Shown here piece after piece: positions 27,592 to 37,815 of a DNA stretch of 64,000 bases. Numbering within the stretch: the first letter of the stretch is position 1; each line of letters starts with the position of its first letter. A program made the translations under genes and the position numbers. The stretch is taken from contig JAJZDI010000006.1 in assembly GCA_021806045.1 (NCBI GenBank), positions 1 through 64,000 on the forward strand, in the 5' to 3' direction. The notes beneath the pieces are model-generated. The model saw nothing but the letters and a program-made list of their open reading frames with translations, searched no databases and was not told the DNA's origin. The DNA comes from Actinomycetes bacterium. GTDB lineage: Bacteria; Actinomycetota; Acidimicrobiia; Acidimicrobiales; RAAP-2.

Positions 27592-29196
27592 GTGTGCGGC
27601 ATCGCCCTGATCCTCGGTGACGGTGCCCGGCGGGACCGCTTCCGCCGCATGCTCGACGCCATCGCCCCCCGGGGAGACGTGGAGGAGACGCTGGTCGAGG
27701 AGGGGATGCTGCTCGGCACCCAGCGGCTGAAGATCGTCGACCGCGAGCACGCCGTCCAGCCGTGGTGCTCGGCCGACGGGCGGTGGGCGCTCTGCTACAA
27801 CGGCGAGGTCTTCAACTTCAAGGAGCTCCGCGGCGAGCTGGAGGGGCTCGGGCACACCTTCCGGAGCCACGGAGACACCGAGGTGGTCCTCGAGGCCTTC
27901 CTGGAGTGGGGCGAGGGAGCCGTCGACCGCCTGCGGGGCGAGTTCGCCTTCGCCGCCGTCGACCGGGATGATCGCTCCGTCTACCTGGCCCGCGACCCGG
28001 TGGGGGTGCGGCCGCTGCACTGGTCCACCGCCCAGGGCTGCCTGCACGTCGCTTCGGAGGTGAAGGCGCTGGTCCCCGTGGGGGCGCCGATCTCGCAGGT
28101 CCCCCCCGGTCACCACGGCTGGGCACGCCCGGGGGCCGAGCCCGAGCTGACCGCCTACGTGGACCTGTTGTCGTTGGGGGACGGCGAACCGCCGGTCGCC
28201 GATCCCGACGAGGCGATGAAGTTGCTCCGCACCGCCCTCGAGGACAGCATCCGGGTGCGGGTCGACACCGACCTGACCGTGGGGGTGGTCCTCTCCGGGG
28301 GGCTCGACAGCGCCCTGGTCCTCGCCAACGTGCGCGAGATGCACCCCGACTGCGTGGCGTTCACGGTGGGCACCCCCGACAGCGACGACCTCCACTACGC
28401 CACCCGCCTGGCCGCCGATCTCGGCGTGCGCCACGAGGTGCTCGAGCTCCGCCCGTCGGCCATCTCGATGGCCGACGTGCGCGCCGCCGTCCGGGTCGCC
28501 GAGCTGACCGAATACGGGGACGTGATCAACGCGGTCGTCTCCAACCGGCTCTACGACCACGTGCACCGGAGCGGGGTGAAGGTCGTCGTCTCCGGCGACG
28601 GCTCCGACGAGCTCTTCGGCGGCTACGTCATGTACCGGGACGTCGGCGACGCCGTTCGCCAGCGGCTCTTCCAGTACAACCTGGCCAGCCTGGGGAGGAC
28701 CGAGCTCCAGCGGGTGGACCGCACCAGCATGGGGCATGGCGTCGAGGTCCGGGTGCCGTTCCTCGACCTGTCGCTGGTCAGGCTGGCCATGCGCATCCCC
28801 ATCGACCTCAAGGTGCGCGACGGCCAGGAGAAGTGGGTGTTGCGGGAGGCATTCGCCGACATGCTCCCCGACTACGTCCTGCGCCGGCGGAAGAACCCGA
28901 TGTCGCACGCCTCGGGCCTCCACGAGCGCATCCGCCTCTACCGGCCGCTGTTCCGCCGCCTCTACCGCTCGTTCGGCTACGAGGCGGCCGCGCCCATGCG
29001 GCGCGACTTCTCGGTGCTCCTCGACCGCTACGGTCTCGACGTGGACCGGGCGCTGGCCGACGAGGCGTCGGCCCGGGACTACACGCTGCTCGAGCACGCC
29101 CGGGACCTGGCCGGCGCGGCCAGGCAGAACCTGGCGGCGCGCCGGCGCCGGCCGGTCCGCCCCGACAACCCGACACCACCGGAGGTCATGCCGTGA
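27592..29196 (+). CDS. asnB: asparagine synthase, glutamine-hydrolysing
   Basis: Class II glutamine amidotransferase fused to an AMP-forming synthetase, 534 residues. Cys2 directly after the GTG start is the glutaminase nucleophile ([10 protein letters not shown]). The N-terminal domain also shows [14 protein letters not shown] and [10 protein letters not shown]. The synthetase domain has the PP-loop [13 protein letters not shown] (about 233-245) and [12 protein letters not shown]. It could make asparagine or amidate a specialised substrate such as a wall or peptide carboxylate; the operon with a peptidase-like gene and gadB leaves both open. The TGA overlaps the gadB GTG. Confidence 0.9.
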
Positions 29197-30593
29197 CCCT
29201 GCACCACCGGGAGTCCGTGCGCTCCCAGCTGCTCGACACCGTCTACGCCGGGCGCGACGCCAGCAAGCCGCTCCCCAAGTACGGCTTCCCGCCGTCGGAG
29301 ACCCGGGCGGACGACGCCGCGCAGCTGGTCGCCGACGAGCTCCTCCTCGACGGCAACGCCCGCCAGAACCTAGCCACGTTCTGCCAGACGTGGGAGGAGC
29401 CCGAGGTGCATCGCCTGATGGACCTGGCCATCGACAAGAACATGATCGACAAGGACGAGTACCCCCAGACGGCCGAGCTCGAGCGCCGCTGCGTCCACAT
29501 GCTGGCCGACCTGTGGCACGCACCCGACGGGGGAAACGCGGTGGGGTGCTCGGCCATCGGGTCGTCGGAGGCGTGCATGCTGGCCGGCATGGCGGCCAAG
29601 TGGCGGTGGCGGGCCCGCCGCCGTGCCGCCGGCCTGCCGGACGACCGGCCCAACCTGGTGTGCGGTCCCGTGCAGGTCGTCTGGCACAAGTTCGCTCGCT
29701 ACTGGGACGTCGAGCTCCGTGAGGTCCCGATGGCCCCCGGCCGGCTGGGGATCGACGTCGAGTCGATGCTCGAGCGGGTGGACGAGAACACCATCCTGGT
29801 GGTGCCCACCTTCGGTGTGACCTACACCGGCCACTACGAGCCGGTGGCCGAGCTCTCTGACGCCCTCGACGACCTCGAGGCCCGCACCGGGCTGTCGGTG
29901 GACATCCACGTCGACGGGGCGAGCGGTGCGTTCGTGGCGCCGTTCTGCGCCCCGGACGTGCGCTTCGACTTCCGGGTGCCCCGCGTCGTCTCCATCAGCA
30001 CCTCGGGCCACAAGTTCGGCCTGGCCCCCCTGGGCGTGGGGTGGGTGGTGTGGCGGGACGCGTCGGCCCTCCCCGAGGACCTCATCTTCCACGTCTCCTA
30101 CCTGGGCGGGGACATGCCCGTCTTCCAGATCAACTTCTCGCGTCCGGCGGGCCAGATCGTGGCCCAGTACTACGACTTCGTCCGGCTGGGCCGGGAGGGC
30201 TACGCCCGCGTCCACCAGACTTCCTACGACGTCTGTGCCTACCTGGCCGGCAAGCTGGGCGGCCTGGGCCCGTTCGAGATCGTCCACCACGGCCGTCCCG
30301 ACGAGGGGATCCCGGCAGTGACGTGGCGGATCGCCGACGGTGCCGATCCCGGCTACACCCTCTACGACCTGGCCGACCGCCTGCGGGTGCGGGGGTGGCA
30401 GGTCCCCGCCTACCCGCTGACCGGCGACCTGGCCGACGTGGCTGTCCAGCGGGTGCTGGTGCGCGCCGGGGTGACCCGCGACCTGGCCGACCTGCTGCTG
30501 GCCGACCTGGCCGACGCCATCGGCCATTTCGGCACCCACCCCGTCAGCCGGTCGATGACGGCCGAGGAGGCCAGCGGCTTCAGCCACCTGTGA
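29193..30593 (+). CDS. gadB: glutamate decarboxylase
   Basis: PLP enzyme that converts glutamate to GABA and CO2 and consumes a proton. The 466 residues equal the length of E. coli GadB. Recognisable are [49 protein letters not shown] and the PLP-binding Lys274 in [21 protein letters not shown] precedes the GTG, which overlaps the asnB stop. No gadC-type antiporter is adjacent, so a GABA-shunt or nitrogen role together with asnB is as likely as acid resistance. Confidence 0.93.
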
Positions 30594-30608
30594 CCGGGCG
30601 GCGCCCGG
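30594..30608. terminator. hairpin directly after gadB
   Basis: CCGGGC and GCCCGG pair around a 3-base loop immediately after the gadB stop, in the 70-bp gap before the convergent exporter genes. Confidence 0.45.
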
Positions 30609-30663
30609 CGCCGACAGTGGCCTTCGCCGGTGGTGGCCGGCGTGCCGGGACCGCGGTGGCGGG

Positions 30664-31548
30664 TCAGGACAGGACGCGGCGGCGGAAGTTGCGCAGCCCG
30701 AGCGCCATGAACCCGGCGCAGAAGGCGACCAGCACGGGGACGATCACGTACAGGTGCATGTGCGACGCGTCGGTGAACCCGGCACGCATCCCCTCGGTGA
30801 CGTAGACGAGCGGGTTGACCAGCACCAGCGTCTGGAGCCACGGGAACCCGCCGAGCGTCACCGAGGCGAGGCGCGTCCACTGGTAGTAGGTGCCGCCGAG
30901 GAACGTGATGGGCAGCACGACGAACCCGAACATCAGCCCGATGTTGCGGGGCTCGAACGTGGTGCCGAGGACGAGCCCGAGCGAGCTCATGGCGATGCAC
31001 GACAGGGGGACGACGACGAGGACCACCCACCAGTGGATGGACAGGTGGGCCTCGACGCCCGGGGCGTGGACCACGGCGGCGATGGGCAGGACGATGGCGG
31101 CCGACAGGACGCCCTGGACCGCACCGGAGAGGACCTTGGCCGCAGCGACCAGCCAGATGGGGCACGGCGCCTGCACCCGGTCCTCGATCTCCCGGGTGAA
31201 GCCGAACTCCTGGGCCAGCTGGGTGGCGACGGCCTGGATGCCCTGGAACATGATCGAGATGCCGACGACGCCGGGGACGAGGACGGTGGCGAATGCCGAC
31301 TCCGCCGCCGGACCGTGCCCACCGCCCACGCCCTGGCCGATCTTGGGGAAGACGTAGAGGAACACGAAGCAGAGGAGGAACGGCTGGACGAGCGTGCGGG
31401 TGATGAATTCGACCAGGTGCTTGCGCAGGACGACCAGGTCCCGCAGGAGGAGGGCCCCCAGCGCGGTGCGCGACGCGGAGGCGGCCGACCGTGTCGGACG
31501 CAGCGCGATGGGGTGCCCGGCGGCCGTCATGGGTGCGTCGGTGGCCAT
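30664..31548 (-). CDS. ABC-2 type exporter permease (DrrB-like)
   Basis: Membrane half of an ABC exporter, 294 residues, with six predicted helices and the ABC-2 signature region (FGFVVLPITFLGGTYYQWTRL, then LVNPLVYVTEGMRAG). It resembles daunorubicin-resistance DrrB and NodJ-type permeases. The ATG overlaps the TGA of the ATPase gene upstream (TGATG), so the two are translationally coupled. A lipid, glycolipid or hydrophobic drug is a plausible cargo. Confidence 0.88.
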   Translation of the reverse strand: MATDAPMTAAGHPIALRPTRSAASASRTALGALLLRDLVVLRKHLVEFITRTLVQPFLLCFVFLYVFPKIGQGVGGGHGPAAESAFATVLVPGVVGISIMFQGIQAVATQLAQEFGFTREIEDRVQAPCPIWLVAAAKVLSGAVQGVLSAAIVLPIAAVVHAPGVEAHLSIHWWVVLVVVPLSCIAMSSLGLVLGTTFEPRNIGLMFGFVVLPITFLGGTYYQWTRLASVTLGGFPWLQTLVLVNPLVYVTEGMRAGFTDASHMHLYVIVPVLVAFCAGFMALGLRNFRRRVLS

Positions 31549-32546
31549 CAGTCCCGGAGGTCCTTTCCGGTGAGGTTGATGAAGACGGTCTCGAGGGTGG
31601 GCTCGGCGATCGACACGTCGACGACCTGGTGACCGGCCGCCTCGGCCGCGGTGACCACCCGGGGCACGATGCGCTCGGCCCCGGCGACCTGGAGCTCGAC
31701 GGCGCCGTCCACCGTGCGGCTGCCCTGCACGCCGTCGACGGCCCCGGCCAGTAGGGCGGACAGCGCTTCGGTGTCGCCCGACGCCCGCACCGTCACGATG
31801 GTGTCCGCGCCCACCGTCCGCTTCAGCGCCCCCGGCGTGTCGAGGGCGAGGATGCGCCCGTGGTCCATGATGGCCACCCGGTGGCAGAGCTGGTCGGCCT
31901 CCTCCATGTAGTGGGTGGTGAGCAGGATGGTCTGGCCGTCAGCGTTCAGGTCGTGGAGGATCTCCCACAGGGCCAGGCGGCTCTGCGGGTCGAGCCCGGC
32001 GGTCGGCTCGTCGAGGAAGAGCACGGCGGGCCGGTGGAAGATGGCCCGGGCCACCATGAGGCGCTGGGCCATGCCCCCCGAGAGGGCGTAGACGGAGGCG
32101 TGGGCCCACTTGGTGAGCTGGAAGCGCTCGAGGAGCTCGTCCGCCGTCCGCCGCGAGTCGGCGCTGCCCATGCCGAACAGGCGGCCGTGGAAGTAGAGGT
32201 TCTCCCACACGTCGAGCTGGCGGTCGAGGGTGTTCTGCTGGCTGACCACGCCGAGGATCTGCTTGGCCAGGGCGGGGTGGGCGACGACGTCGACCCCGCC
32301 CACCTCGGCGTGCCCGGCGGTGGGGACGACCCGGGTGGTGAGCATGCCTGCCGTCGTCGTCTTTCCGGCGCCGTTCGGTCCGAGCAGGCCGAAGATCTCC
32401 CCGGCCGGCACCTCGAGGTCGAGCTCGTCGACGGCCCGGAAGTCGGCCCCTGCGTAGACCTTGGTCAGGCCGACGGTGCGGATGACCGGCGCCGCGCTCC
32501 TGGGCGCGCCGTCCGTGGCGGGGGCGTGGGCTGGCTGGGCGTCCAT
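31548..32546 (-). CDS. ABC exporter ATPase (DrrA-like)
   Basis: Nucleotide-binding subunit of the DrrAB-type exporter, 332 residues. Walker A is GPNGAGKTTTAGML, the Q loop lies in VVSQQNTLDR, the signature is ALSGGMAQRLMVARA, Walker B is VLFLDEPTAGLDPQ, and the H loop is LTTHYME. The C-terminal 90 residues match the DrrA regulatory domain (ETVFINLTGK). The ATG at 32546 (MDAQPAHAPATDG) is used because upstream codons lack family similarity. No drug-biosynthesis genes are nearby. Confidence 0.92.
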   Translation of the reverse strand: MDAQPAHAPATDGAPRSAAPVIRTVGLTKVYAGADFRAVDELDLEVPAGEIFGLLGPNGAGKTTTAGMLTTRVVPTAGHAEVGGVDVVAHPALAKQILGVVSQQNTLDRQLDVWENLYFHGRLFGMGSADSRRTADELLERFQLTKWAHASVYALSGGMAQRLMVARAIFHRPAVLFLDEPTAGLDPQSRLALWEILHDLNADGQTILLTTHYMEEADQLCHRVAIMDHGRILALDTPGALKRTVGADTIVTVRASGDTEALSALLAGAVDGVQGSRTVDGAVELQVAGAERIVPRVVTAAEAAGHQVVDVSIAEPTLETVFINLTGKDLRD

Positions 32547-32655
32547 GGCGGGCCCAACGCTACCGGTGGGGCGTCCGGCACCGACCGCCCGTGCCGGCGG
32601 GCTGGCGTGGCGAGGGGCACGGGAGGGCCACTGGAGGGTCACTGGACCCCCGGCC

Positions 32656-33864
32656 TCACCTGCCGGCTGACGCCGTCGTGGTGAGCCCGATGAACTCCCG
32701 GACGTTGGAGGAGAGGACCCGGGCGCGCACGTCATGACCGAGGACGGCCAGGTCGTCCACCGATCCCCGCGGTTCGGGGAGCGCCTCGATGTGTGGCCAG
32801 TCCGAGCCGAAGAGGACCCGGTCGGCGCCCATCAGCTCGACCACCTGGACCACGTCGTCCTCCCAGAACGGGTTGATCCAGACCTGGCGACGGAACGTGT
32901 CGAGGGGGTCCTCGCTCCAGTAGCCGGGGCTCTTGCGGGCCGTGGACCGCACCTTCGCGAACAGGTCGGGGAGGTACTCGGCCCCGTTCTCCACCGAGGC
33001 CAGACGCAGGTTCGGGAACCGCTCCAGGTGCCGTTCGAAGATCATGGTCAGGAGGTAGTCGCGGATGGCCTGCTCGATGGCGAACGCCTTGATCGACGGC
33101 TTCCACCCGGTGGCGAAGGTGGCGGCGAAGCCGTTCGGGGCGAACCCGTTGGACGAGATCCCCGAGTCCCCGGCGTGGAGGACGACGGGCACGCCCGCCT
33201 CGTCGGCCAGCCCCCAGAATCCGTCGAAGACGGGATCGAACGGCGAGACCCGCCCCTGTGCGGTTGTAGGGGCGGCCGGCCGCATGACGATGCAGCGGGC
33301 GCCCCGGTCGAGCATCCACCGGAGCTCCGTCGCGGCCCACACCGGGTCGGCCAACGTCAGGTAGGGGGCGGCGAAGATGCGGCCGCCCGCGTCGAAGCCC
33401 CAGTCGTCGAGGAGCCAGCGGTTGAACGCCTCGAAGAGGCGGCACACGGCCCAGGGGTCGTGGGCCAGGGGTTCCTCGTAGATCATCCCGAGCGTCGGGA
33501 ACAGCAGGCACCCGTCGAGGCCCTGGGCGTCGAGGGCGGCCAGGCGGGCCGACGGGTCCCGGTACTCGGGTCGGACGGGCTCCCGCTCGGCCAGGAGGGC
33601 GAGCGGGTTGGCGCCCGCCGGGTTTCCCCGGAAGTAGTCGTAGAGGGCGCCGGGGCGGGCGATGGGGTCGAAGGTGGGGTTGGTGACGGCCCGGCTGACG
33701 CGGCCGCCGAGCACGTGGTAGCGGCGGCCGCCGATCTCGCACCACTGGACCACACGCGGACCGTGGGCGGGGTCGAGGTGGCGGGTGAAGGCGTCCAGCG
33801 CCTCGTAGTAGTGCTGGTCGGCGTCGAAGACGGCCGGTCCGTGCCCGTCGGGTGCGTCTGCCAC
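32656..33864 (-). CDS. amidohydrolase family 2 protein
   Basis: TIM-barrel metal hydrolase or decarboxylase of 402 residues. The start region reads AVFDADQHYYEALDAF, where the usual DxHxH metal motif appears as DADQHYYE, so the first His pair is altered. LFPTLGMIYEEP, VVLHAGDSG, SVENGAEYLPDLF and LFGSDWPHIEALPEP place it with the amidohydro-related and 5-carboxyvanillate or ACMSD-like group. The GTG at 33864 is chosen because GGAGGGGA lies 6 bases upstream; ATG pairs at 33912-33915 are alternatives. The substrate is unknown. Confidence 0.8.
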   Translation of the reverse strand: MADAPDGHGPAVFDADQHYYEALDAFTRHLDPAHGPRVVQWCEIGGRRYHVLGGRVSRAVTNPTFDPIARPGALYDYFRGNPAGANPLALLAEREPVRPEYRDPSARLAALDAQGLDGCLLFPTLGMIYEEPLAHDPWAVCRLFEAFNRWLLDDWGFDAGGRIFAAPYLTLADPVWAATELRWMLDRGARCIVMRPAAPTTAQGRVSPFDPVFDGFWGLADEAGVPVVLHAGDSGISSNGFAPNGFAATFATGWKPSIKAFAIEQAIRDYLLTMIFERHLERFPNLRLASVENGAEYLPDLFAKVRSTARKSPGYWSEDPLDTFRRQVWINPFWEDDVVQVVELMGADRVLFGSDWPHIEALPEPRGSVDDLAVLGHDVRARVLSSNVREFIGLTTTASAGR

Positions 33865-33870
33865 CGTGGC

Positions 33871-33878
33871 TCCCCTCC
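33871..33878 (-). promoter_or_regulatory. Shine-Dalgarno site that places the amidohydrolase start
   Basis: GGAGGGGA on the minus strand ends 6 bases before the GTG at 33864 and favours it over ATGs about 50 bp upstream. Confidence 0.5.
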
Positions 33879-34034
33879 GCACCGAGACGTCGTGACCCGG
33901 CGCACCCGCCATCATCTCGTGGGCGGAGCGGCAGGTCCAGGGGCACGGGACCCGACCCCGCGTGCCCGCCGGGGTCGGACGCGGCACCATGGGGGGGTGG
34001 TCGGTCGGCACACGAGGACGTTGGGAACCAGCCG

Positions 34035-35066
34035 GTGAGCGCGGTGGTCCTGGCCGGGCCCATCGGCCACGGTGCCCATGTGGGGGAGGCGCACCCCGAG
34101 CGACCCGACCGGGTCATGGCGGCCATGGCCGGCCTGGTCGACCTCGACCTCGGCTCCGATCTGGCCCGGGTGGACGTCGTTCCGGCTGGCGACGACGACC
34201 TGTTGCGGGTCCACTCCCGTGCCCACCTCGACCACCTCGAGCGGCTGGCCGCGTCGGGGGGCGGCCACATCGACCCCGACACCTTCGTCACGGCCGACTC
34301 GTGGGACACGGCCCGCCTGGCCGCCGGCGCCGGCCTGGCCGTGGCCGCCGAGCTGTCCCGGCAGGGCGACGGGTTGGGCGTGGTCATCGCCCGCCCGCCG
34401 GGGCATCACGCCACCCGCCGGCAGGCCATGGGCTTCTGCCTCGTCAACAACGTGGCCGTGCTCGCCGCGTCACTGGCCGCCACCGGCGAGCGGGTCCTGG
34501 TGGTCGACTGGGACGTGCATCACGGCAACGGCACCCAGGACATCTTCTTCGACGATCCCCGGGTCCTCTACGTCTCGACCCACGAGTGGCCCCTCTACCC
34601 GGGGACGGGCGCGCCAGACGAGGTCGGTTCGGGGGCCGGGGTGGGGACGACGGTCAACCTGCCCGTGCCCGCCGGTGCCACCGGCGACATCCTGCGGCGG
34701 GCCCTCGAGGCGATCGCCGCCCCCGTCGTCGAGGCGTTCGCCCCTGACTGGGTGCTGGTCTCGGCCGGCTTCGACGCCCACCGGGCCGATCCGCTGGCCG
34801 GGCTGGTCCTCTCCGACGGCGACTTCGCCGAGCTGGCCGCCCTGGCCGGGAGCTGGGCCCCCGCACCCGGTCGCCTGGTGGTGTTCCTCGAGGGCGGCTA
34901 CCACCTGGGGGCGGTGCGGGCGTCGATGGCGGCGACCGCCGGCCGCCTGGTGGGGGCGGGTCGCCTGCCCGTCGCGCCCCCGACATCGGGTGGGCGGGGC
35001 CTCGGCCACCTGGAGGCCACGGCCAGGCGCCGGGCCCGGGCCCTCGAGGAGGCGGGGCGGGGCTGA
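34035..35066 (+). CDS. histone-deacetylase-family (acetoin utilisation AcuC-like) protein
   Basis: Zinc deacetylase fold of 343 residues. Motifs in order: HPERPDRVMAAMAGL at the N terminus, the active-site His pair in RPPGHHATRRQAMGFCLVNN, the metal ligands in VVDWDVHHGNGTQDIF, and SAGFDAHRADPLAG with the last Asp, then EGGYHLGAV. Bacterial members remove acetyl groups from acyl-CoA synthetase lysines, polyamines or small amides; which applies here is open, though acyl-CoA synthetases occur in the window. The GTG start at 34035 lies 170 bp from the divergent amidohydrolase start. Confidence 0.88.
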   Translation: MSAVVLAGPIGHGAHVGEAHPERPDRVMAAMAGLVDLDLGSDLARVDVVPAGDDDLLRVHSRAHLDHLERLAASGGGHIDPDTFVTADSWDTARLAAGAGLAVAAELSRQGDGLGVVIARPPGHHATRRQAMGFCLVNNVAVLAASLAATGERVLVVDWDVHHGNGTQDIFFDDPRVLYVSTHEWPLYPGTGAPDEVGSGAGVGTTVNLPVPAGATGDILRRALEAIAAPVVEAFAPDWVLVSAGFDAHRADPLAGLVLSDGDFAELAALAGSWAPAPGRLVVFLEGGYHLGAVRASMAATAGRLVGAGRLPVAPPTSGGRGLGHLEATARRRARALEEAGRG

Positions 35067-35104: not shown

Positions 35105-36511
35105 ATGCCCCCTCCCCGGCCGTTCGACCCCGCCGCGTACGGCGTGTTCCGGATCGGCGACCTCGACTGGGACGAGACCCGGCGCTCTGCCCGCCTCGGC
35201 TATGAGCTGGTGCCGTCGGCAGGCGGCCCGCCGGTGGCGTTCGAGGAGACGGTCACGTTCGAGGAGCCCGGGAGCGGATGGGCCGGCACCACCGCACCTG
35301 CCGGGCTCCGCCGGGTGCTCGCCCTCCTGCACGTCGCCGCCGGCACCAGCTACTACAAGGTGGCCGCCCCACCGACCGTCGAGGTGCCGGCGCCGCTGTC
35401 GGACGCGGCCCGCCGCCTCCACCACCACCTCTACGACGACGGGCTGCGGGAGTTCGCGGTGACCAACGGCCTGGCCGTGCCCCGTGACGTGCGGATCGAC
35501 GCGCCGGCGGCCGGCCCCGCCGGTGACCCGGGTCCGGCCCCGCCGCCGGGCATCGCCGTACCGATCGGTGGGGGGAAGGACTCGATGGTGGTGGTCGAGG
35601 CGCTCCGCCACCTCGCACCCCGCCTCATCGCCGTCGATCCCCATCCCCTGGTCGTTGAGCTGGCGGCCGAGGCGGGCCTGGAGCTGCTCGTCGTCCGGCG
35701 TCACCTCGACCCCACCCTGGCCGAGTGGAACCGGGCGGGGGCCCTGAACGGCCACGTACCGGTGACGGCCATCGTCTCGCTGATCGCCCTGGCCGGTGCC
35801 TTCGTCTACGGCTACGACACCGTCGCCATGTCGATCGAGCGGTCGGCCAGCGAGGCGACCCGCACCATCGGCGGGGCCGAGGTGAACCACCAGTACTCGA
35901 AGAGCCTGGCCTTCGAGCAGATGCTCTCGTCGCTGGTGCGGGACGAGGTGCACCCGGCCCTCACCTACGCCTCGGCCCTCCGCCCCTACTCGGAGCTGGC
36001 CATCGCCCGGGCGTTCGTCGGGGCCACCCGCTACCACCGCACGTTCTGCAGCTGCAACACTGCGTTCCGCCGGGACCGTCCGGTAACCCAGCGGTGGTGT
36101 GGCGCCTGCCCGAAGTGCCGCTTCGTCGCCCTCGTCCTGGCGCCGTTCGCCGGGCGGGCGGCCGTGGCCGGGATCATCGGGCGCGACCTGCTCGACGACC
36201 CGGGTGAGGTGGCCGGCTTCGCCGAGCTGCTCAGCCCGGAGGACAAGCCGTTCGAGTGCGTGGGCGAGCGTCGGGAGTCGGCCGCCGCCATCGCGCTGCT
36301 GGCGGCCCGGGGCGACTCCGGCGCCGTCGTCACCGCCCTGGCCGGCCGGGCCGCCGCCCTGGCCGGTGGGCCGGTGGTGGACGAGCTGCTGGCCGCCGAC
36401 CACACCCTCGACTTCCCCGACCCGGAGATCGCCGGCGCCGTCGCCCGCTACCTGGAGGCGCCCGCGGGGCGGTCGGTCGCCTCCGGCGAGGTGCCCGGGG
36501 GCGCCCGGTGA
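35105..36511 (+). CDS. murL: UDP-MurNAc-L-Ala-L-Glu epimerase (MurL)
   Basis: MurL, first described in Xanthomonas, epimerises the terminal L-Glu of UDP-MurNAc-L-Ala-L-Glu to D-Glu and so replaces glutamate racemase in peptidoglycan synthesis. This 468-residue protein has the PP-loop-like AVPIGGGKDSMVVVEAL (PIGGGKDS at 153-160), VSLIALAGAFVYGYD, EVNHQYSKSLAFE and a C-terminal Cys cluster (FCSCNTAF and CGACPKCRF) resembling ExsB-like zinc sites. The neighbouring murD2 paralogue, coupled by GTGA, is the known partner and makes the assignment firm. Confidence 0.88.
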   Translation: MPPPRPFDPAAYGVFRIGDLDWDETRRSARLGYELVPSAGGPPVAFEETVTFEEPGSGWAGTTAPAGLRRVLALLHVAAGTSYYKVAAPPTVEVPAPLSDAARRLHHHLYDDGLREFAVTNGLAVPRDVRIDAPAAGPAGDPGPAPPPGIAVPIGGGKDSMVVVEALRHLAPRLIAVDPHPLVVELAAEAGLELLVVRRHLDPTLAEWNRAGALNGHVPVTAIVSLIALAGAFVYGYDTVAMSIERSASEATRTIGGAEVNHQYSKSLAFEQMLSSLVRDEVHPALTYASALRPYSELAIARAFVGATRYHRTFCSCNTAFRRDRPVTQRWCGACPKCRFVALVLAPFAGRAAVAGIIGRDLLDDPGEVAGFAELLSPEDKPFECVGERRESAAAIALLAARGDSGAVVTALAGRAAALAGGPVVDELLAADHTLDFPDPEIAGAVARYLEAPAGRSVASGEVPGGAR

Positions 36512-37815
36512 GGGTGGCCGACCTGGCCGGGTGCCGGGTGGCCGTGTGGGGGACCGGCAGCGAAGGGGGCGCCTTCGCCCGCCTGCTGCGCTCCCGGGGG
36601 GGTGACCCGGTGATCGTGGACGACCGGCCCGGCGGCACCGGGGTGGTGCCGCCCACAGCCGACCTGTTGCGTTCGGTCGACGTCGTCGTGCGCTCGCCCG
36701 GGGTGTGCCGCTACCGGCCGGAGCTGGTCGAGGCCGAGGCCCACGGGGTGGAGGTCACGACGCCGATGGCGTTGTGGCTGGCGGAGATGGCCGGCCAGCC
36801 GGTGCTGGCGGTGACCGGCACCAAGGGGAAGAGCACCACGGCGACGCTGGCCGCGGCGATCCTGCGGGCGGCCGGCCTCGACGTGGCCCTCGCCGGCAAC
36901 ATCGGCGTTCCCGTCACCGACCTCATGGGTGGCCCCCGGCACGACGCGTACGTGGTCGAGGTGTCGTCCTACCAGGCGGCCGATGTGACGGTGGGGGCGG
37001 CGGTCACGGTGGTGACGCTCCTGGCCCCCGACCACCTCGACTGGCACGGTGGCGTCGAGGCCTACTACCGGGACAAGCTCCGCCTGGTCACGACGGTCCC
37101 CGACCACCCGGTGGCCGTCAGCACGGCGAGCGCCGACGCGCTCGAGCGCACGTCGGGCCTGCCGGCCCGCACCCTCTACGGCGACCGGGGCCTGGTGGTG
37201 GTCTCAGGTGGGCGGCTGCTCGCCGGGGGGGAGCCGGTGGCCTCACTGGACCGGTTCCGTGCCCGGGGTGCCCACAACGCCCTCAACGCGGCCGGCGCGC
37301 TGGCCGGTGCCACACTCCTGGCCGGCCCGCCGCCGGCGGGCGCGGTGGCCGACGCGCTGGAGGGATTCGAGCCCCTGCCGTCGCGGTCCCGACCGATCGG
37401 CGACTGGGGCGGGCTCGAGTTCGTCGACGACGCCCTCGCCTCCAACCCGTCGGCCACGGCGGCCACGCTGGCCTCCTACGACGCCAGGGCCGTCGGGCTG
37501 ATCGTCGGGGGGGCCGACCGGGGCGTCGACCTCGGACCGCTGGCCGGGGCCGTCGCCCGCCACCGGGGAGAGCTCACCGTCGTCGCCGTCCCCCCTGGCG
37601 GGGGGCGGTTCGTCGAGGCGCTGGTCGAGGCCCGGCCGGGACTGGCGGCCGCCGAGGCGCCCGGGATCGACGAGGCGGTGGCGTTGCTCGTCGGATCGGT
37701 GTCGCCGGGCGGCGCCATCCTGTTCTCGCCGGGGGCGCCGACTCCCGATGGCGAGGGCGGCTACCGGGCCCGCGCCGCCCAGTTCGCCGCCGCCGCCGTG
37801 CGGCACACGGCCTAG
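36508..37815 (+). CDS. murD2: UDP-MurNAc-L-alanine--L-glutamate ligase (MurD2)
   Basis: Mur ligase of 435 residues. It has an N-terminal Rossmann-like domain (VAVWGTGSEGGAFARLL), the ATP P-loop VTGTKGKSTTATLAAAIL (about 104-121), YVVEVSSYQAADV with the metal-binding Glu, and a C-terminal ligase domain (DDALASNPSATAATL, IVGGADRGVDLG). As part of the MurL route it would add L-Glu rather than D-Glu to UDP-MurNAc-L-Ala. The GTG start overlaps the murL stop; a second GTG two codons later could also serve. A separate ordinary MurD could exist elsewhere. Confidence 0.87.
   Translation: MRVADLAGCRVAVWGTGSEGGAFARLLRSRGGDPVIVDDRPGGTGVVPPTADLLRSVDVVVRSPGVCRYRPELVEAEAHGVEVTTPMALWLAEMAGQPVLAVTGTKGKSTTATLAAAILRAAGLDVALAGNIGVPVTDLMGGPRHDAYVVEVSSYQAADVTVGAAVTVVTLLAPDHLDWHGGVEAYYRDKLRLVTTVPDHPVAVSTASADALERTSGLPARTLYGDRGLVVVSGGRLLAGGEPVASLDRFRARGAHNALNAAGALAGATLLAGPPPAGAVADALEGFEPLPSRSRPIGDWGGLEFVDDALASNPSATAATLASYDARAVGLIVGGADRGVDLGPLAGAVARHRGELTVVAVPPGGGRFVEALVEARPGLAAAEAPGIDEAVALLVGSVSPGGAILFSPGAPTPDGEGGYRARAAQFAAAAVRHTA

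What the first reader, a model, noticed from the sequence alone, without database searches (positions are those of the whole stretch)
35105..37815. murL-murD2 pair: alternative D-glutamate route for peptidoglycan
The PIGGGKDS protein coupled to a Mur ligase matches the MurD2/MurL system described in Xanthomonas, in which L-Glu is added and then inverted. If the genome lacks murI (glutamate racemase) and D-amino acid transaminase, this would be the only source of D-Glu in its wall.
Basis: partly seen in the sequence, partly recalled or inferred. Interest (0 to 1): 0.55.

Follow-up and report, generated by a model that had tools for sequence, protein, structure and literature searches.

The report
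Alternative cell-wall D-glutamate pathway (MurD2–MurL)
This actinobacterium appears to make the D-glutamate of its cell wall by attaching ordinary L-glutamate first and flipping it afterwards, a known but rare route that here seems to have replaced the two usual genes, and the predicted shape of the flipping enzyme hints at how it works.

Summary
MurL (35105-36511) and a MurD-type ligase (36508-37815) form an overlapping gene pair. In this 3.1-Mb genome (97.5% complete) no murI and no second murD were found, and the one class-IV aminotransferase is IlvE. The dcw cluster lacks murD between mraY and ftsW, where 27 of 29 sampled MurI-bearing relatives have it. Over 296 genomes of the class, MurL (31) and MurI (191) overlap once, by a weak hit. 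In all 31, murD2 follows murL directly, twice as one fused protein. MurD2s form one clade apart from the canonical MurDs sampled, and carry Arg for E. coli Lys348 (105 of 105) and Ile/Leu for Lys319 (105 of 105). The pathway is known from Xanthomonas and Micromonospora, so this is a new member, in an Acidimicrobiia-like lineage. Added here: a confident MurL model (pLDDT 94.6) aligns best with QatC and QueC (Z 18.1, 13.2), PP-loop ATP enzymes. That suggests how MurL activates its substrate, which the literature calls unclear; sequence-level support for this kinship is weak. Caution: this MurD2 keeps Asp where X. oryzae MurD2 has Glu197.

The parts
35105..36511 (+). [quoted passage not shown]
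36508..37815 (+). [quoted passage not shown]
   Evidence: TIGR01087 234.8 bits, cut-off 212; MurD2 clade; signature residues
36508..36511 (+). GTGA: overlap of the murL stop and murD2 start
   Evidence: read; same gene order in 31 of 31 loci
35561..35584 (+). MurL residues 153-160 PIGGGKDS, PP-loop-like pyrophosphate-binding motif
   Evidence: G155, G156, G157, D159, S160 invariant in 24 and in 75 sequences; profile match to TtuA SGGKDS E 0.022
35747..35767 (+). MurL residues 215-221 NGHVPVT, conserved motif
36053..36118 (+). MurL Cys317, Cys332, Cys335, Cys338: QueC-like four-cysteine set (candidate zinc site)
   Evidence: all four invariant; QueC motif C(x)8CxxCxxC as given in PMC13329287 (passages)
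37030..37032 (+). MurD2 Asp175, at E. coli Asp182 (Glu197 in X. oryzae MurD2)
   Evidence: D in 39 of 105 MurD2s, E in 64, C in 2
37435..37437 (+). MurD2 Leu310, at E. coli Lys319
   Evidence: I or L in 105 of 105 MurD2s; K in 29 of 30 canonical MurDs
37519..37521 (+). MurD2 Arg338, at E. coli Lys348 (Arg358 in X. oryzae MurD2)
   Evidence: R in 105 of 105 MurD2s; K in 30 of 30 canonical MurDs

Best explanation
[quoted passage not shown] MurL then uses ATP to activate the alpha-carboxylate of that Glu (most likely as an acyl-adenylate, on a PP-loop fold like QueC's), which makes the alpha-proton removable; reprotonation from the other face and hydrolysis leave D-Glu and AMP, and MurE takes over. 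Shown here by sequence: gene pair, loss of murI and of dcw murD, MurD2 clade and residues, confident MurL model. Shown by others in X. oryzae, Micromonospora and Salinispora enzymes (PMC8788868): L-Glu ligation, one-way epimerisation, ATP to AMP. Inferred: that these activities hold here; the adenylate and the order of proton transfer (the adenylate was also the hypothesis of PMC8788868); that the cysteines hold a metal.
For: Own genome: no PF01177 match; the only TIGR01087 match over cut-off is MurD2; the only Aminotran_4 is IlvE; dcw is murE-mraY-ftsW-murG-murC without murD. Class: MurL in 31 of 296, MurI (TIGR00067) in 191 of 296, both in 1 (G141, E 4.4e-7). Six family codes (f2, f8, f13, f15, f16, f19) hold MurI-bearing and MurL-bearing members, one genus code (g22) too. 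15 of 15 dcw clusters examined in MurL genomes lack murD between mraY and ftsW (own included); 27 of 29 MurI-genome regions have it there. murD2 is beside murL in 31 of 31, fused in 2. MurD2 is one clade, SH-aLRT 100; K348R and K319I/L in 105 of 105. K319T lets E. coli MurD accept L-Glu, and Arg358 is a stereospecificity residue of X. oryzae MurD2 (PMC8788868). MurL model: QatC Z 18.1 over 315 residues, QueC Z 13.2.
Against: No enzymology here. The assembly is 97.46% complete, so one absence alone could be a gap. This MurD2 has Asp at the Glu197 position; in X. oryzae MurD2 E197D changed stereospecificity, so strict L-Glu specificity is not certain. MurL scores 344 bits against a model cut-off of 700, though Micromonosporaceae proteins score 400-402 and Xanthomonas/Stenotrophomonas 826-829. 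Two of 21 MurL genomes tested (G141, G273) carry a PF01177 protein over cut-off (124 and 128 bits), so exclusion of all racemase relatives is not perfect. The MurL-MurI counts are not phylogenetically independent (18 of 31 are one family). Foldseek itself gave no match at E <= 0.001 (best 0.016), and hhalign of MurL against QueC was weak (probability 9.7, E 0.0033).
Confidence: 0.88

Rival explanations
1. The ligase is an ordinary D-Glu-adding MurD that moved next to MurL; D-Glu comes from another enzyme (a gap-hidden murI, a bifunctional DapF as reported for Chlamydia, or a promiscuous aminotransferase), and MurL does something else.
For: It scores over the canonical MurD cut-off; it keeps Asp at E. 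coli Asp182; the assembly is not closed. A paper reports DapF with glutamate racemase activity in Chlamydia (PMC5885031, search listing only). DapF was not searched here.
Against: It lies in the MurD2 clade, not with canonical MurDs of the same class, with Arg and Leu where 30 of 30 and 29 of 30 canonical MurDs have Lys. MurI is absent from 30 of 31 MurL genomes by TIGR00067, so a single gap is not enough.
Confidence: 0.07
2. MurD2 here is relaxed and takes both enantiomers, MurL correcting the L product while some D-Glu enters from salvage.
For: Asp175 resembles the E197D change that altered stereospecificity in X. oryzae MurD2 (PMC8788868); 39 of 105 MurL-linked MurD2s share Asp.
Against: Lys319 and Lys348 are both replaced, as in every MurD2 examined; no D-Glu source was found in the genome by the families searched.
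Confidence: 0.1
3. MurL is not a PP-loop carboxylate-activating enzyme; the similarity to QatC and QueC is a common Rossmann-like arrangement only, and ATP is used in another way.
For: No Foldseek match at E <= 0.001; weak profile match; no Pfam family.
Against: The aligner's Z of 18.1, 13.2, 13.1 and 12.7 (QatC, two QueCs, Cap9) stand well above the next rows (8.5 and less), and the top five are all QueC-family; AMP is the reported product (PMC8788868); the GGG-DS loop and four cysteines are invariant.
Confidence: 0.25

Closest known systems
MurD2/MurL pathway of Xanthomonas oryzae (XOO_1320/XOO_1319)
   Same: Adjacent genes, MurL family (NF041275), Arg at the Arg358 position, no MurI or D-amino-acid transaminase found.
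   Different: MurL about 40% identical to Xanthomonas sequences (39-41%); Asp for Glu197; murL comes first and overlaps murD2; host lineage not in the review's list of taxa.
MurD2/MurL of Micromonosporaceae
   Same: Actinobacterial; NF041275 scores likewise under the 700-bit cut-off (400-402 bits).
   Different: In the Actinoplanes-type loci L093, L101, L110, L116, L117, L121, L123, L127, L131, L145 murD2 is on the opposite strand beside murL; Longispora (L115) has same-strand order. Micromonospora and Salinispora themselves were not among the fetched loci.
QueC family (QueC, QatC, Cap9)
   Same: Predicted MurL fold; GGG-DS loop; CxxCxxC with a further upstream Cys; ATP-dependent chemistry on a carboxylate in QueC and Cap9 (PMC13279940, passages and section 8).
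   Different: Loop is GGGKDS, not SGGxDS; spacing C(x)14CxxCxxC; no PF06508 match to the window protein; QatC's own reaction is unresolved.
MurI plus canonical MurD
   Different: D-Glu made free and then attached; murD lies in dcw between mraY and ftsW in 27 of 29 relatives examined.

Membership tests
MurD2/MurL pathway | MurL homologue | tested here: met
   NF041275 E 9.8e-103; below the Xanthomonadales cut-off of 700 bits, as are Micromonosporaceae proteins
MurD2/MurL pathway | MurD-like ligase gene beside murL | tested here: met
   31 of 31 in the class sample
MurD2/MurL pathway | No glutamate racemase | tested here: met
   PF01177 0 matches in own genome, control rings in 10 of 14; TIGR00067 none
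MurD2/MurL pathway | No D-amino-acid transaminase | tested here: met
   single Aminotran_4 is IlvE; TIGR01121 over cut-off in 0 of 66 genomes, a strict cut-off that only 1 of 14 controls passes
MurD2/MurL pathway | No canonical murD elsewhere | tested here: met
   dcw cluster without murD
MurD2/MurL pathway | Arg at X. oryzae Arg358 | tested here: met
   Arg338
MurD2/MurL pathway | Glu at X. oryzae Glu197 (described for one enzyme, not defining: 39 of 105 MurL-linked MurD2s have Asp) | tested here: not met
   Asp175
MurD2/MurL pathway | L-Glu ligase and ATP-dependent one-way epimerase activities | not testable with these tools
   needs purified enzymes
QueC superfamily (for MurL) | PP-loop fold | tested here: met
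   VIA-align 2: QatC Z 18.1, QueC 13.2 and 13.1, Cap9 12.7; Foldseek alone not significant
QueC superfamily (for MurL) | SGGxDS loop and C(x)8CxxCxxC | tested here: inconclusive
   variants GGGKDS and C(x)14CxxCxxC, invariant in 75 sequences
QueC superfamily (for MurL) | Membership of Pfam PF06508 by sequence | tested here: not met
   no Pfam match to the window MurL at 1e-3; none of 75 members matched PF06508 at E 1; hhalign weak. MurL is therefore called a fold relative, not a member

The most novel reading that the evidence does not exclude
MurL is a QueC/QatC-type PP-loop enzyme, so a carboxylate-activating fold known from queuosine synthesis and phage defence also drives a one-way peptide epimerisation in cell-wall synthesis: the Glu alpha-carboxylate is adenylated, inverted and released by hydrolysis. 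The structural match to QatC includes the N-terminal extension, which would make MurL and QatC closer to each other than to QueC. In Acidimicrobiia-like bacteria the murL-murD2 cassette has replaced murI and dcw murD, in exchange that went on within families, and in one family the two enzymes fused.
Probability: 0.55. Interest if true: 0.65.

Novelty: new member of a known kind. Interest (0 to 1): 0.5.

Why it matters
D-Glu supply and the MurD step are near-universal in bacteria and are drug targets. This work extends a rare alternative to an actinobacterial lineage where close relatives differ in the route they use, which gives natural pairs for comparison. It names two MurD positions (E. coli 319 and 348) that separate the two ligases in every sequence examined here, so the route can be called from sequence. 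It also gives MurL, described as lacking known domains and with an unclear mechanism (PMC8788868), a testable active site and chemistry.

Tried and rejected
MurL is not classified by Pfam and has no usable sequence match in the PDB (profile search best is TtuA, E 0.022). PADLOC gave no defence family for the window MurL; QatC similarity is seen only by structure. No relative of MurL was confirmed in viral contigs (0 of 35 pattern matches). A plasmid search with MurD2 gave 33 records under 60% identity, of which the Xanthomonas sacchari one carries an annotated murL; nothing followed from it. The structure of MurD2 from a single sequence was poor (pLDDT 40.7) and was not used. The idea that the 75 genomes with neither MurL nor MurI hold MurD2 without MurL was rejected: in the 29 readable MurDs of 30 fetched, positions 319 and 348 are Lys; the 30th was a wrong reading frame picked by my script. 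G267 of the own family lacks MurL, MurI and MurD in its assembly yet has the murD-less dcw, so a gap holding the cassette is the likely reason.

Rows dropped: MurD alignment left out L047, L077, L104 and L184 as short and L147 as unrelated; L118 and L152 gave no MurD2. The MurD tree used 33 of the 80 named loci, the MurL tree 35 of 80. The MurL alignment used for the model has the window and 74 of 80 loci (L125, L129, L134, L144, L149, L151 left out as near copies). Both trees are of the 'quick' kind, and apart from E. coli all canonical MurDs in them come from the window's class. Start codons of relatives were picked by script, so overlap lengths are approximate.

Full report
What is there. 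MurL occupies 35105-36511 and MurD2 36508-37815 on the + strand, with a GTGA overlap. MurL has no Pfam family and matches NCBIfam's MurL model NF041275 at E 9.8e-103 but at 344 bits, below the cut-off of 700. That cut-off separates Xanthomonadales only: Xanthomonas and Stenotrophomonas proteins score 826-829, two Micromonosporaceae proteins 400 and 402, and MurL orthologues of Micromonospora and Salinispora were confirmed in vitro according to the review PMC8788868 (parts 1 and 2 of 3 read).

The rest of the genome. The window is C39:1-64000 of a 3,104,608-base assembly in 43 contigs, 97.46% complete. It has no PF01177 match (the same search rings in 10 of 14 controls), no TIGR00067 match, and one TIGR01087 match over the cut-off, the MurD2 here. 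The other seven weaker places were read as murC, murE, murF, a MurT-like ligase, a MurE-like ligase with a glycosyltransferase domain (two of the places) and, by eye, FolC. The single Aminotran_4 protein is IlvE. The dcw cluster reads murE-mraY-ftsW-murG-murC with no murD.

Relatives. In 296 genomes drawn evenly from the class, MurL is found in 31 and MurI (TIGR00067) in 191; only G141 has both, its MurI hit being weak (E 4.4e-7). Fisher's test gives p 3e-14, which overstates the case because 18 of the 31 belong to the window's own family (18 of 19 members there). Independent support is that six family codes and one genus code hold both kinds. A wider model, PF01177, tested in 20 of the MurL genomes besides the own one, finds a protein over cut-off in two, G141 and G273; whether these are glutamate racemases was not tested. 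D-amino-acid transaminase over its strict cut-off was found in 0 of 66 genomes, all 31 MurL genomes included.

Gene order. In 31 of 31 MurL loci murD2 lies directly downstream on the same strand: 27 overlap by the starts chosen, 2 are 6-8 bases apart, and 2 (G009, G166, family f32) are one frame with MurL first; the G166 frame runs off its contig. In 60 genomes searched for MurD (31 with MurL, 29 with MurI), the best MurD of each MurL genome is the copy beside murL (in G277, whose contig ends inside murD2, a fragment on another contig), and further hits are at most 120 bits, the range of murC and murE. In 27 of 29 MurI-genome regions murD lies between mraY and ftsW; one region ends at its contig edge (L158) and in one (L172) murD lies elsewhere. 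In 15 MurL genomes whose dcw cluster was read (own plus 14 chosen because murE and murC share a contig), mraY and ftsW matches are 30-321 bases apart with no murD.

MurD2 sequence. In an alignment of 105 MurL-linked MurD2s and 30 canonical MurDs, E. coli Lys348 is Arg in 105 of 105 and Lys in 30 of 30; Lys319 is Ile or Leu in 105 of 105 and Lys in 29 of 30 (Thr in L172); Ala414 is Pro in 99 of 105. E. coli Asp182 is Glu in 64, Asp in 39 (this window included) and Cys in 2, the fused proteins. The review reports that Glu197 and Arg358 of X. oryzae MurD2 set its specificity and that K319T lets E. coli MurD take L-Glu. So the window's protein has two of the three L-Glu-linked states. The tree puts 63 MurD2s and 30 canonical MurDs on two sides of one branch, SH-aLRT 100, which argues for replacement by a cassette and not for point change in place. 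The MurL and MurD2 trees show the same main groups, and the window's family falls in two separate MurD2 lineages.

Host. The nearest named MurL is from an 'Actinomycetes bacterium' bin (74% identity), followed by Acidimicrobiaceae and Acidimicrobiales bins at 55-59%; the host is inferred to be Acidimicrobiia-like. L074 keeps the neighbours of the window's pair (decarboxylase, ABC transporter, deacetylase-like gene, enoyl-CoA hydratase and dehydratase genes). The review's list of taxa does not name Acidimicrobiia, and none of the four papers listed by a search for MurL, epimerase, peptidoglycan and Acidimicrobiia holds the last term.

MurL fold and mechanism. The AlphaFold model, from 75 sequences, has pLDDT 94.6 and pTM 0.94. 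Foldseek found nothing at E <= 0.001. VIA-align 2, run on Foldseek's top 1000, gave QatC Z 18.1 (315 residues, model 11-397), QueC 13.2 and 13.1, Cap9 12.7, then 8.5 and less, where TtuA, LarE, ThiI, TilS and NAD synthetase are found. Hhalign of MurL against seven QueC sequences aligned the GGG-DS and SGG-DS loops but was weak (probability 9.7, E 0.0033). QueC activates a carboxylate with ATP (PMC13279940, passages); MurL turns ATP into AMP, and adenylation of the Glu alpha-carboxylate was already the authors' guess (PMC8788868). The fold supports that guess. No paper in the library held both 'MurL' and 'QueC'. QatC's own reaction is unresolved, so it cannot be used to infer MurL's.

Verdict. 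The pathway is known; the lineage, the clean loss of dcw murD, the fused form, the two-position signature and the fold link are additions. The weakest points are the lack of enzymology, Asp175, and the structural but not sequence-level case for the fold.

Noticed in passing
L050:1912-4509 and L056:6600-9182: MurL and MurD2 fused in one frame (MurL first) in two genomes of family f32; both have Cys at the E. coli Asp182 position.
   Followed up: partly
75 of 296 class genomes: Neither MurL nor TIGR00067 MurI found, many of them about 1-Mb genomes of genus g66; the readable MurDs are canonical (29 of 29), and no D-amino-acid transaminase passes its cut-off in the 35 tested. Some have PF01177 proteins over cut-off. 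Their D-Glu source is unassigned.
   Followed up: partly
L172 (G060): A canonical-side MurD outside dcw with Thr at E. coli Lys319, in a genome that has MurI; K319T is the change reported to let E. coli MurD accept L-Glu.
   Followed up: no
L011:5377-7794 (genome C17): A second MurE-like ligase fused to a glycosyltransferase-like domain (TIGR01085 387 bits).
   Followed up: no
L012:3340-4860 (genome C17): A MurT-like ligase, the subunit type that amidates D-Glu of lipid II, so this lineage may act twice on the same Glu carboxylate.
   Followed up: no
L010:7830-9671 (genome C30): The only murF-like gene found by the murD search lies outside dcw.
   Followed up: no
L147 and L152: MurL of a Patulibacter bin and of a gammaproteobacterial bin labelled Dichelobacter without MurD2 in the fetched stretch.
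   Followed up: no
27592-35066: Genes upstream of the pair: asparagine synthase-like, glutamate-type PLP decarboxylase and a histone-deacetylase-family protein 38 bases before murL.
   Followed up: no
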